A DNA stretch of 64,000 nt, from assembly GCF_021631985.1 (NCBI RefSeq), contig NZ_CP070225.1, forward strand, positions 6,758,001 through 6,822,000, given 5' to 3'. The stretch is from Sandaracinus amylolyticus (lineage in GTDB: Bacteria > Myxococcota_A > Polyangia > Polyangiales > Sandaracinaceae). A program made the translations under genes and the position numbers. Under the pieces are notes generated by a model, which ran no database searches, was not told where the DNA came from, and saw only the letters and a program-made list of their open reading frames with translations. Positions 436 to 5,429 of this stretch are shown here, in pieces (within the stretch, counting starts at the first letter, position 1; every line of letters starts with the position of its first letter).

Positions 436-1932
436 CTACGGGCCGTCGGAGTCGCAACACCGGAAGCCGAGCGTTCCGAGGAGCGTGTCCTCCGTCGCGC
501 GCGAGAGCTCGGTCGTGCACGTCAGGCCGAGCTGCGGCGACTCGTGCGATCCGCCGCGCACCACGAAGATGCGCCCGCCGCCGCTCGCGCTGCCGCGCTG
601 ATCCGCGGTCCACTCCTTCGCGTTGCCCGACATGTCGAGCACGCCTTCTTCGCTCACGCACATCGCAAGCGCGCCCGTCGGCTCGAGCCGCGAGTCGATC
701 GCGCCGCCCGCGACCGCGTCGCGATCCGCGCCGTTGCACGTCGCGGCCTCGTACGTGTCGCCGTAGGGATAGTCGCGACCGCTCGCGCCTTCGCACGCCG
801 CCCGCCACTCCGCCGCGGTGCACAGGCGATGTCCCGCCGCCGCGCATGCCGCCGCCGCTTCGTCGTACCCGATGCTCGTCCACGGCAGCACGCCGGCGCG
901 GCCACACGCGCGCGCGCTCGACGTGCCGCCCGCGCTCGCGCTCGAGTCGGGGCGCGACGCTTCGTGGCGATAGATCCAGAACGTCGTCGCCCCGCGGGTG
1001 ATCTGCACCATGTCGTCGCGCACGCGCCCGGCGTCGCTCGGATCGCTGTCGTCGATCGTCCCGTCGCAGTCGTCGTCGACGCCGTTGCAGATCTCGGCGA
1101 GCGGCGCGCCCGGAACCGGATCGGGCGCCACGCCGAGATCGCAGATCGTGCGCGACGCGTCGGCAGGATCGCACGCGATCTCGCCGGCGTCGCGGCACGC
1201 GCCGCGCCCGCCGTTGTCGCACGCGTCACCGAGCGCCGCGAAGCTCTCGTCGCGCAGGCCGTCGCAGTCGCCGTCCTCGCCGTCGCAGCGCGTCTCCTCG
1301 AGCACGATGCCGTTGGGCACCACGGGATCGAACTCGACGTTCGCGGGATAGTCGCAGAACCAGGTCGTGCGTCCCTCGCGCGTCGTGCACGTCGGCACGA
1401 CGCCCGCGCACGGCGTGCCCGGCGTGGTGCGACACAGGCCGGGCGGCGGCGCGGGCAGCGTCTCGTCGACGACTCCGTCGCAGTCGTCGTCGAAGCCGTT
1501 GCACTCCTCGCCCTGCGTCGGGAAGACCGGGCACGCGTACTCGCAGCCCGGCACGTCATCGAGATCGACGAAGCCGTCGAAGCACGCGGTCACGACGCAC
1601 GCGCCGCTCGCACACTCGCCTTCGGCGTTCGGAAAACGGCACTGAGTGCCACATTCTCCGCAGTTCGTCGGATCGTTCTCGAGGTCGAAGCCCTCGTCGG
1701 TGAGGTCGTCGCAGTCGTCGTCGAGCTCGTTGCAGAGCTCGACCGCGCCGTCGGTCGGCACGCACTCGCCCGCGTCGTCGGCGATCTCGGCGTCGTCGCC
1801 CGAGGCACGGGCGTCACGCGCCGCATCGACCGCACCTCCGTCGATCGGATCGGGGCACGCGACGCAGTAGGCATCCACCTCGCAGCCCGCCACGATCATG
1901 GCGAGCGCGATCACGCTCCACCCGCGGCTCAT
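436..1932 (-). CDS. Lipoprotein with MopE-type repeats and C-terminal sulfatase-modifying-factor (SUMF1/FGE) domain
   Basis: 498 residues from the ATG at 1932. The start overlaps the upstream stop as ATGA, so translation is probably coupled. Residues 1-17 are a lipoprotein signal with lipobox IVAGC. A linker rich in Asp and Ala leads to at least four Cys/Asp repeats of the form CNELDDDCDD or CNGFDDDCDG (roughly residues 60-325), of the type described for the Methylococcus MopE family. The last 170 residues resemble the formylglycine-generating-enzyme fold: RHEASRP near its start, HRLCTAAEW, a GNAKEW motif, VVRGGSH, and a final GFRCC. In this family the fold can be enzymatic or only a binding module. 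Catalytic copper-binding cysteines were not established here. It is probably anchored outside the cell together with the preceding VWA protein. Confidence 0.8.
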   Translation of the reverse strand: MSRGWSVIALAMIVAGCEVDAYCVACPDPIDGGAVDAARDARASGDDAEIADDAGECVPTDGAVELCNELDDDCDDLTDEGFDLENDPTNCGECGTQCRFPNAEGECASGACVVTACFDGFVDLDDVPGCEYACPVFPTQGEECNGFDDDCDGVVDETLPAPPPGLCRTTPGTPCAGVVPTCTTREGRTTWFCDYPANVEFDPVVPNGIVLEETRCDGEDGDCDGLRDESFAALGDACDNGGRGACRDAGEIACDPADASRTICDLGVAPDPVPGAPLAEICNGVDDDCDGTIDDSDPSDAGRVRDDMVQITRGATTFWIYRHEASRPDSSASAGGTSSARACGRAGVLPWTSIGYDEAAAACAAAGHRLCTAAEWRAACEGASGRDYPYGDTYEAATCNGADRDAVAGGAIDSRLEPTGALAMCVSEEGVLDMSGNAKEWTADQRGSASGGGRIFVVRGGSHESPQLGLTCTTELSRATEDTLLGTLGFRCCDSDGP

Positions 1933-2726
1933 CGCGCACCTCCACGACGGCGGCGAGCCACCACGAACGCGAGCGCGATCATCACCAGCACCACGCCACC
2001 ACCGCGCGCCGCGCCCGGCGCGACGACGCTGCACACGCCACCGCCGCCCGCCGCGAGCACCCACTCGCCCGTGCCCGCATCGACGCCGCCGCCGACGCGC
2101 GCGCACTCCGCGACACCGCTCGCGCTCACCGCGCACGAACGGCCCGCGGGGCACGTCACGAGCGCGCACGGGTCGGGGATGCACCCCGTCGCGCCCGCGC
2201 ACACCTCGCCGCGATCGCAGCGCACGCCGCGGCAGGGATCCATGCGGCACTCGCCCGCGACGCAGACGCGACCGCCGTCGCAGGTCACGCCCGCGCAGGG
2301 GTCGCTCTCGCACGTTCCGTCCGCCGCGCAGCGCTGGCCCGCCGGGCAATCACCGGGCCCGCACGCGCTGCGGCACTCACCGTCGACGCACATCTGCGCG
2401 CTGGTGCACGTCGCGTCGGCGCAGCGGTTCGGGCGGCACGCGCCGTCCCAGCAGAGCTCGCCGCCCGCGCAGCCGAGCACCTCGCAGCCCACGCAGTCGC
2501 CGCCGCGGCACTCCTCGCCCTCGCCGCAGGTCACGCCCTCGCAGGGATCGACGCACACGTCGTCGACGCAGCGCTCGTGCGCCTCGCACTCCGCGCACGC
2601 GGTGGGCACGCAGTAGTTGCCGGTCGCGCCCTCGGGCATCGTGCACACGAAGTCCACCGGGCACGGGAACTCCATCGCGGGGTCGCACGAGCGGCGGCAC
2701 GAGCCCTCGAGGCAGAGCGAGCCCAC
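1929..2726 (-). CDS. C-terminal part of the split MopE-repeat surface protein (MYXO-CTERM-like anchor)
   Basis: 265 residues if begun at the GTG at 2726. Coding character continues in the same frame upstream without interruption to the UGA at 2837-2835, so this is most likely the C-terminal half of the 2835-5429 gene rather than a separate gene. It holds EGF-like Cys-rich units (CAGVTCxxGxxC type), then an Ala/Gly linker, GGGVCS, one hydrophobic segment (VVLVMIALAFVVA) and RRRRGGAR. That layout matches MYXO-CTERM-like sorting tails. It has no signal peptide, so export alone would fail. Its stop overlaps the ATG of the next gene as ATGA. The GTG start has no clear ribosome site. Confidence 0.6.
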   Translation of the reverse strand: MGSLCLEGSCRRSCDPAMEFPCPVDFVCTMPEGATGNYCVPTACAECEAHERCVDDVCVDPCEGVTCGEGEECRGGDCVGCEVLGCAGGELCWDGACRPNRCADATCTSAQMCVDGECRSACGPGDCPAGQRCAADGTCESDPCAGVTCDGGRVCVAGECRMDPCRGVRCDRGEVCAGATGCIPDPCALVTCPAGRSCAVSASGVAECARVGGGVDAGTGEWVLAAGGGGVCSVVAPGAARGGGVVLVMIALAFVVARRRRGGAR

Positions 2727-2834
2727 CGGGCACTCCGCGAAGTCGTCCGCCGTCCCGTTGCAGTCGTCGTCGAGGCCGTTGCAGACCTCGTCGCGCGGGC
2801 CGCGACCACCGATGCACGTGAGCTCGCCGCCGAC

Positions 2835-5429
2835 TCAGCGCAGCGCGCCGGGCTCGCACTCTCCTTCGTCCTCGCCGCACGGCGTGCCGAGCGCGGGATC
2901 GACCTCGTCGACGAGCCCGTTGCAGTCGTCGTCGACGCCGTTGCAGACCTCGGCGCCGCTCGGCGTGCACTCGATGTTGCAGGTGAGGCCCTCGTCGATC
3001 GCCTCGTCGCAGTCGTCGTCCATCCCGTTGCACGACTCGGTGCCGGCCGACCCACCGGGCATCGTGATCGCGCACTCCACCGCGAGCTCGCTCGCCGCGC
3101 ACACCGTCGCGCCGGTGCCGCGGCACGCGCCGACGAGCCCGTCGTCGCACGCGTCGCCGAGCGCGAAGCCCTCGTCGGTGCGGCCGTCGCAGTCGTCGTC
3201 CATCGCGTTGCAGCGCTCGGTGCGCAGCGAGCCCTCGAGGATCGAGGTGATCGCGGGCACGAGCTCCGCGGGGTTGCGCACGAAGGTCGCGCTGGCGCGC
3301 GCGCCGCCCGAGCCCGCCGACGCGATCTGGTTGAGCGACACTTCTTCCTCGGGGCGCACGCTCACCGCGACGACGTAGGTCTCGATGCCGAACGTGTCGT
3401 GGAGCCGGCGCGCCTGCGCGACGGGATTGCCGCCGCAGCTCTCGGCGCCGTCGGTCACGAGGATCACCGAGTAGCCGCGGCATCCGGTCGAAGGATCGGT
3501 GGCGCGGATCGGAACGACGTAGTCCTCGATCGTCTGCAGCGATCCCGCGAGCGGCGTCTCACCGCTCGCGCGCACCTCGCAGTCGCGTCCGGCGCGTGCG
3601 TGACGGCACACGTCACCCGGCGTCGCGTCGGCGTCGAACGCGGTCTCGCGTCCGTCGAGCCAGCGCACGAGATCGCGGGTCGGCGTGCCGAAGCCGCTCA
3701 GCACGTCGGCGCCGCGGCGCGGCGGGCCGCAAGTGCCCGCGTAGTTGATGCACTCGTCGCCCGCGGTGGAGATCGGGCGGATCGCGACGCTCGACGCGGG
3801 GCCGGTCGCGACGTTGCACGCGACGGTCCCGGTGTTGTCGCCGGGGTTGTCGTAGGTGCCGATCAGGCCTTCGCACTCGAACCATCGCGCGGTCTGGCAG
3901 GAGCGACGGAGGCCCTGATCCTGGTGATAGCGGGCGAGCGCGAAGTCGATCTCGGGATACGCGCTGATGACCTGCGCGAGCGATTCGCGCGCGAGCGAGA
4001 GGCGCGAGTCGTCGGGGCGCCCGTTGCCGTCGGTGTCGATGCCGGGACGATCGACGCTGCCGTCGCCGAACGTCGGATAGCCGCGAAGATCGAGGAGCAT
4101 CGAGCTCGACGTGTCGAGCACGACCGCGATGCGCGGGCGCGCGCCCGCATCGCTCGCGGTGCACGAGGGATCGCTGGTCACCATCGGTGCGCAGGTGACC
4201 GGCGCGCCCGACGCGCACGCCGCGATGTCGCGCGCGCACGCGCCGAGGCCACAGCTCGTCGAGCCGAGGCCCTCGTCGACGTTGCCGTCGAAGTCGTTGT
4301 CGAAGCCGTCGCAGTACTCGCCGACGTACGCACCGTCGAGCAGCAGCTCGCCCGCGCCGCCGCCTGCCTCACCGCGACAGATCTCGCAGACGCCGCCCTC
4401 CGCGCCGCCGACGTCGAACGTCGCGCCGTAGTGGAGCGACGAGCTGCGCGAGAGCACGTTGATGATGCCGCCGCCTCCACCGCCGCCGCAGTCGTCGCAG
4501 GTGCCGCCGGCCTGTCGGCCCACGCAGTCGGCGGCGTCGGGCTGTCCGCCCATGCCCGAGTTCGTGTCGCCGCCGAGCCCGCCCGCCGCGGTGACGAAGC
4601 CGGTCGCCCCCACCTGCACCTGATCGCCGACGATCAGGATCGATCCGCCCGCGCCACCACCGCCCGAGTCGTTGCCGCTGCCGCAGCCGCGACGCCCCGC
4701 GGCGTTGATGCGACCGTCGACCTGCACGGTGCCGGTGCCCGCCGCGGTGAGCCCGACGAGCACGATGCGACCTCCGCCCGCGCCGCCGGTCGAGACGTTG
4801 TCGAAGCCGTCGCGACATCCCTTGTCGCCGCCGGCCGCGCCGAACTCGATCTCGTAGATGCTGTGCCGGTACGAATCGCCGGCGACCGAGGGCAGGCCGT
4901 CGTTGTCGTAACAAGTGCTGCCGCCGGTCGCGACGCAGCCGTTGTTCGTCCCGTTGAGCGCGCCGCACAACTCCTCGAACTCCTGCGGGAACTGGCAGGA
5001 GGTCGTCGCGCCGAAGACGAAGCAGTCCTTCGTGCCGCGACCGCCGCGCCCGAAGTGCGCGCCGCCGCCGCCCGAGTCCAGCACCGCGCAGCCGCCGCGA
5101 CCGCCCGAGAGCGGTGCGCTCGCAGGCCCGCTGCCGTTGCCGCAGATCACAGGCTGATAACCCGCCCCGCGCGCTTCGATCGACGACGTCGCGTCGACGA
5201 CGATGCTCTCCGCGATCAGCACGAGGTTGCCGGTGGTCGTGCGATTGGTGCCGTTGAACGCGGGCACGAGGATGCGCCCGTTGTTCGTCACGCGGACCGT
5301 GCGGTACCGGTGCACGCCGCCGAGCGTGACCGTCGTGTTGTTCACGACGAGGTCCTGCGCGCTCGCGATGGCTGGGATCGATGAAAGGAAGAGGAAGAAG
5401 AGAGCGAAGGTCGCCCGGCTGCGTGACAT
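2835..5429 (-). CDS. Secreted Gly-rich / VWA / MopE-repeat surface protein, ended by an in-frame UGA
   Basis: 864 residues from the ATG at 5429; a GTG directly upstream is possible. The signal peptide is SRATFALFFLFLSSIPAIAS, followed by AQ. Next is a Gly-rich, beta-strand-rich region (about residues 25-370) with many GGGGAGG runs. A von Willebrand factor A domain has MIDAS residues DTSSS near 438-442 and spans about 430-700. At least four CNGxDDDCDG repeats complete the visible part. The frame ends at UGA (2837-2835) in the context ECEPGALR-stop-VGGELTC, where related repeats have Cys (a TGC to TGA change). The same frame continues coding-like to 1929, giving about 1167 residues with signal peptide and C-terminal anchor. 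See the finding on this stop. A GACACT hexamer (5443-5438) lies 8 bp before the ATG. Confidence 0.75.
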   Translation of the reverse strand: MSRSRATFALFFLFLSSIPAIASAQDLVVNNTTVTLGGVHRYRTVRVTNNGRILVPAFNGTNRTTTGNLVLIAESIVVDATSSIEARGAGYQPVICGNGSGPASAPLSGGRGGCAVLDSGGGGAHFGRGGRGTKDCFVFGATTSCQFPQEFEELCGALNGTNNGCVATGGSTCYDNDGLPSVAGDSYRHSIYEIEFGAAGGDKGCRDGFDNVSTGGAGGGRIVLVGLTAAGTGTVQVDGRINAAGRRGCGSGNDSGGGGAGGSILIVGDQVQVGATGFVTAAGGLGGDTNSGMGGQPDAADCVGRQAGGTCDDCGGGGGGGIINVLSRSSSLHYGATFDVGGAEGGVCEICRGEAGGGAGELLLDGAYVGEYCDGFDNDFDGNVDEGLGSTSCGLGACARDIAACASGAPVTCAPMVTSDPSCTASDAGARPRIAVVLDTSSSMLLDLRGYPTFGDGSVDRPGIDTDGNGRPDDSRLSLARESLAQVISAYPEIDFALARYHQDQGLRRSCQTARWFECEGLIGTYDNPGDNTGTVACNVATGPASSVAIRPISTAGDECINYAGTCGPPRRGADVLSGFGTPTRDLVRWLDGRETAFDADATPGDVCRHARAGRDCEVRASGETPLAGSLQTIEDYVVPIRATDPSTGCRGYSVILVTDGAESCGGNPVAQARRLHDTFGIETYVVAVSVRPEEEVSLNQIASAGSGGARASATFVRNPAELVPAITSILEGSLRTERCNAMDDDCDGRTDEGFALGDACDDGLVGACRGTGATVCAASELAVECAITMPGGSAGTESCNGMDDDCDEAIDEGLTCNIECTPSGAEVCNGVDDDCNGLVDEVDPALGTPCGEDEGECEPGALR

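What the first reader, a model, noticed from the sequence alone, without database searches (positions are those of the whole stretch)
2835..2837. In-frame UGA at a cysteine position splits a surface protein
The 865-codon frame from 5429 ends at UGA in ECEPGALR-stop-VGGELTC. The same frame continues without other stops for 302 codons to 1929 with MopE repeats, EGF-like units and a MYXO-CTERM-like anchor. Repeats of this type have Cys at that point (xLxCVGGELxC), so TGC became TGA by one base. The left half alone has a signal peptide but no anchor; the right half alone has an anchor but no signal. Explanations: a real nonsense mutation, a base-calling error, programmed readthrough, or, least likely, selenocysteine in place of cysteine.
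Basis: partly seen in the sequence, partly recalled or inferred. Interest (0 to 1): 0.65.

Follow-up and report, generated by a model that had tools for sequence, protein, structure and literature searches.

The report
Nonsense mutation in myxobacterial surface protein
A single changed letter turns a cysteine codon that is present in every related gene into a stop, cutting one bacterium's cell-surface protein short; it is an ordinary recent gene-disabling mutation (or, less likely, a sequencing error), not a special use of the stop codon.

Summary
On the minus strand of a Sandaracinus chromosome (size matches the PacBio genome of S. defensii MSr10575), an 864-aa frame ends at TGA 2837-2835, and the same frame stays open for 301 more codons to TGA 1931-1929. 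Orthologues from 15 other genomes, one of them the same-genus genome at 92% identity, are each one uninterrupted frame. All 15 have Cys at this codon (13 TGC, 2 TGT). TGC>TGA is therefore a single-base change private to this genome. Selenocysteine is effectively excluded: no SelA, no SelB, no tRNA with anticodon UCA among the 56 tRNA-model matches, no unusual fold after the UGA. Programmed readthrough has no comparative support because the stop is not shared. The part after the stop was under strong purifying selection (dN/dS 0.085), which dates the change as very recent. In 144 genes compared with the sister species the assembly shows almost no other credible breaks, so a real mutation is favoured over a base-calling error, but only reads can decide. 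One addition: in all 15 orthologues the full-length stop overlaps the start of a lipoprotein gene (ATGA/GTGA), so the early stop may also lower that coupled gene. Ordinary; low interest.

The parts
2838..5429 (-). Left part of the broken gene: signal peptide (MSRSRATFALFFLFLSSIPAIASA), Gly-rich region, von Willebrand A-like region, MopE/4-Cys repeats; 864 aa
   Evidence: PF11617 E 8e-11; PF00092 sub-threshold; signal peptide read by eye
2835..2837 (-). Premature TGA; TGC or TGT (Cys) in all 15 distinct orthologues
1932..2834 (-). Former 3' part of the gene, 301 codons: MopE-like motif, Cys-rich EGF-like units, MYXO-CTERM-like C-terminal anchor (GGGGVCS, hydrophobic helix, ARRRRGGAR)
   Evidence: anchor by eye, below the NCBIfam model
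1929..1931 (-). Original stop TGA, overlapping the next gene's ATG (ATGA)
436..1932 (-). Downstream gene, 498-aa lipoprotein (MSRGWSVIALAMIVAGC) with MopE and FGE-sulfatase domains; start overlaps the target's original stop by 4 nt, conserved in all orthologues

Best explanation
A recent, strain-specific nonsense mutation (TGC>TGA, C to A on the coding strand) in a conserved Sandaracinaceae surface-protein gene. Shown: the stop, the Cys codon in every orthologue, its absence from relatives, and purifying selection on the 3' part until recently. Inferred: translation ends after 864 residues inside a four-Cys repeat. The product can still enter the Sec pathway but lacks its C-terminal anchor and EGF-like part, so it is released or degraded and surface display is lost. 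Because the original stop overlaps the start of the next lipoprotein gene, that gene probably loses translational coupling and may be expressed less.
For: All 15 distinct orthologues are single open frames with TGC (13) or TGT (2) at this codon. The same-genus genome is identical from codon 866 to 873 and at the seven codons before the stop, and differs at the stop codon itself by having TGC. dN/dS against it is 0.085 after the stop and 0.21 before, with no excess of amino-acid changes on this branch after the stop: 6 in 301 codons against 17 in 845 before. It is the only mid-gene nonsense change with coding-like substitutions clearly on both sides among 144 genes (68,390 codons) compared with the sister genome. 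The genome shows almost no credible frameshifts in the same genes, and a PacBio consensus errs mainly by indels (own knowledge), so an isolated substitution is more likely real. No SelA, SelB or UCA tRNA.
Against: Raw reads, other strains of the species, RNA and peptides were not available, so a base-call error cannot be ruled out. The low dN/dS after the stop would also fit leaky readthrough that keeps some full-length protein.
Confidence: 0.73

Rival explanations
1. Base-calling or assembly error: the strain really has TGC and an intact protein of about 1,166 aa.
For: The surroundings look fully functional: low dN/dS after the stop, conserved operon overlap, no second lesion.
Against: The species genome is reported as PacBio (PMC9306752), where consensus errors are mostly indels (own knowledge). 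Almost no credible frameshifts were found in 144 genes.
Confidence: 0.17
2. Functional leaky readthrough of the UGA (for example by near-cognate tRNA-Trp or tRNA-Cys), so both a released 864-aa form and a small amount of anchored full-length form are made.
For: The frame after the stop is intact and conserved. In-frame stops with low dN/dS are reported to be widespread in bacteria (PMC7918605).
Against: The stop is in one genome only and is Cys everywhere else. The downstream RNA folds no better than shuffles. No suppressor tRNA with UCA was found. Recency alone explains the low dN/dS.
Confidence: 0.08
3. Selenocysteine inserted in place of cysteine.
For: UGA at a Cys position.
Against: No SelA and no SelB C-terminal domain; the one tRNA-Sec model match over cut-off is tRNA-Ser(UGA); no UCA anticodon; no stable or SECIS-like fold, and the flank is identical in the TGC-bearing relative.
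Confidence: 0.005
4. Gene fission: the two halves are now separate genes, the right one with its own start.
For: A GTG at 2726 opens a 265-aa frame.
Against: No Shine-Dalgarno-like match to the motifs scanned in the first ~230 nt after the stop, no signal peptide on the right half by eye, and every orthologue is fused.
Confidence: 0.015

Closest known systems
Strain-specific nonsense mutation or young pseudogene in a bacterial genome
   Same: Single-base stop in one genome, intact orthologues everywhere else, no decay of the 3' part yet
   Different: Nothing, apart from the possible polar effect on a conserved overlapping gene
MYXO-CTERM surface proteins sorted by myxosortase (PMC11980579)
   Same: Signal peptide, and a C-terminal Cys motif, hydrophobic helix and Arg-rich tail in the frame after the stop
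   Different: The NCBIfam MYXO-CTERM model does not match this protein or the sister orthologue; one orthologue scores 19.2 against a cut-off of 20; here the anchor is cut off by the stop
Bacterial selenoproteins with UGA-encoded Sec
   Same: UGA at a position that is Cys in homologues
   Different: No Sec machinery, no tRNA-Sec, no SECIS-like fold, not a redox family

Membership tests
Nonsense-mutated gene (young pseudogene) | Orthologues have a sense codon at the stop position | tested here: met
   15 of 15 distinct orthologues TGC/TGT
Nonsense-mutated gene (young pseudogene) | The stop is present in the organism's DNA, not only in the assembly | not testable with these tools
   no reads held; indirect support from low break density
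Nonsense-mutated gene (young pseudogene) | Relaxed selection after the stop (a feature of older pseudogenes, not required of a recent one) | tested here: inconclusive
   dN/dS 0.085; no excess of changes; no relaxation seen, as expected if the stop is very recent
Selenoprotein | selA and selB in the genome | tested here: not met
   PF03841 and PF09107: no match; controls positive in E. coli
Selenoprotein | tRNA with anticodon UCA | tested here: not met
   56 RF00005 matches examined, none UCA
Selenoprotein | SECIS hairpin just after the UGA | tested here: not met
   fold z-scores +0.5 to +1.4
Programmed readthrough | Stop conserved in relatives | tested here: not met
Programmed readthrough | Full-length product detected | not testable with these tools
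   needs proteomics or a reporter
MYXO-CTERM protein | Match to TIGR03901 over its cut-off | tested here: not met
   no match in window or G001; 19.2 bits in L042, cut-off 20
MYXO-CTERM protein | Tripartite Cys motif, TM helix, Arg-rich tail | tested here: inconclusive
   GGGGVCS...VVLVMIALAFVVARRRR seen by eye; no TM predictor run

The most novel reading that the evidence does not exclude
The UGA is a recent, tolerated leaky stop that splits output between a released and an anchored form of the surface protein while also tuning translation of the coupled lipoprotein gene in this strain.
Probability: 0.05. Interest if true: 0.45.

Novelty: already known. Interest (0 to 1): 0.1.

Why it matters
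Mainly a caution for annotation: the gene should be recorded as one interrupted gene of about 1,167 codons, not as two proteins or a selenoprotein. If the stop is real, the strain lacks a surface protein conserved in its family and may under-express the coupled lipoprotein, which makes it a natural loss-of-function strain for studying that two-gene operon.

Tried and rejected
Selenocysteine: searched SelA, SelB, tRNA-Sec, all tRNA anticodons and local RNA folds; all negative. A first scan for broken genes flagged 39 of 162 genes; this was a flaw of the method (starts placed too far upstream make whole genes look off-frame) and was replaced. Other in-frame stops flagged were set aside: 800006 and 847077 look like antisense frames, 1099571 is late in the gene, 813897 is near the start, 823128 lies in a stretch without coding-like substitutions, and 983511 is unclear. 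A survey for the four-Cys repeat in 464 kb found only this gene with the strict pattern, so it did not help. A structure prediction was not run because it would not bear on the verdict.

Full report
Observation. The minus-strand frame starting at ATG 5429 ends at TGA 2837-2835 after 864 residues; the same frame continues for 301 sense codons to TGA 1931-1929. The window is bases 6758001-6822000 of a 10,754,065-bp contig in a two-contig genome of 10.96 Mb. That contig size equals the 10.754 Mb reported for the PacBio genome of Sandaracinus defensii MSr10575 (PMC9306752), so this is probably that strain. The identification rests on size and relatives only.

Orthologues. Searching 56 related genomes and the public genome contigs gave orthologues from 15 distinct genomes. 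Each is one uninterrupted frame, 1,158-1,235 codons where complete, apart from one stop-to-stop frame of 1,478 codons; two are partial at contig edges. At the window's TGA all 15 have cysteine: 13 TGC, 2 TGT. The closest, G001 (same genus, 92% protein identity), has CGC TGC GTC GGC GGC GAG CTC ACG TGC where the window has CGC TGA GTC GGC GGC GAG CTC ACG TGC. The change is one base and private to this genome among those available. Two other four-Cys units in the protein have a Cys at the equivalent place (by eye).

Selection. Against G001, dN/dS is 0.21 before the stop and 0.085 after it. Polarised with further orthologues, this branch has 6 amino-acid changes after the stop and 17 before, the same rate per codon (0.020), with 6 and 34 ambiguous. 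If the 3' part had been free of constraint for the whole branch (dS about 0.11 per branch), some 75 changes would be expected in about 680 nonsynonymous sites. The stop therefore arose in roughly the last tenth of the branch or later, or the 3' part is still expressed, or the stop is an error. The calculation is rough.

Selenocysteine and suppression. SelA (PF03841) and the SelB C-terminal domain (PF09107) do not match this genome, while both ring in the E. coli control. The tRNA-Sec model's only match over cut-off is tRNA-Ser(UGA) by ARAGORN. None of the 56 tRNA-model matches in the genome has anticodon UCA. RNA after the UGA folds slightly worse than shuffles (z +0.5 to +1.4). The first sequence difference after the stop relative to the TGC-bearing sister gene is at codon 874.

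Error or mutation. About 464 kb of this genome was compared with the syntenic 500 kb of G001. Among 144 coding-like G001 genes (68,390 codons), 7 showed an in-frame stop in the window's genome. Only the target is a mid-gene stop with coding-like substitutions clearly on both sides; the others look antisense, terminal or ambiguous. Frameshifts with coding-like substitutions on both sides numbered one weak case here, and three in the reverse direction. The assembly thus seems clean, and an isolated substitution error in a PacBio consensus would be unusual (own knowledge). A real mutation is favoured, not proven.

Consequence. Truncation falls inside a four-Cys repeat and removes the Cys-rich EGF-like part and the C-terminal Cys, hydrophobic helix and Arg-rich tail. 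That tail has the layout described for MYXO-CTERM proteins sorted by myxosortase (PMC11980579), but NCBIfam's model does not reach its cut-off in the members tested, so membership is not claimed. The signal peptide remains, so a released or degraded product is the expected outcome (inference).

Operon. The original stop overlaps the ATG of a 498-aa lipoprotein gene with MopE and FGE-sulfatase domains (window 1932-436). The same 4-nt overlap, ATGA in 12 and GTGA in 3, with a downstream lipoprotein-like start where enough sequence is held, is seen in all 15 orthologues. In many of them a GGAGG-like Shine-Dalgarno sequence lies in the codons for the Arg-rich tail just before it. Coupled translation is likely, so the early stop may lower the lipoprotein too (inference).

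Verdict. An ordinary recent nonsense mutation, or less likely a base-call error, in a conserved surface-protein gene.

Noticed in passing
window 1929-1950 (-), and all 15 orthologues: Conserved ATGA/GTGA overlap between the surface-protein gene and a lipoprotein gene; in many orthologues the Arg codons of the C-terminal tail (CGG AGG) look like the Shine-Dalgarno site of the next gene.
   Followed up: partly
window 436-1932 (-): Lipoprotein with MopE motifs and an FGE-sulfatase domain, found next to the VWA/MopE surface protein in the relatives checked; the pair looks like a conserved two-gene unit of unknown function.
   Followed up: partly
L144:1308-1383: ARAGORN calls a tRNA with a four-base anticodon (cgtt) next to tRNA-Gln and tRNA-Lys; it may be a degenerate tRNA or a false call.
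   Followed up: no
window 2790-3270 (-): The stretch around and before the stop (codons 720-880) has unusually few differences from the sister species (13 in 160 codons, roughly a third of the gene's average), perhaps a recombination tract.
   Followed up: no
G001 orthologues of G000:C1:6705596-6708331 and 6713929-6716007: Two genes intact in the window's genome appear frameshifted mid-gene in the sister genome, with coding-like substitutions on both sides.
   Followed up: no
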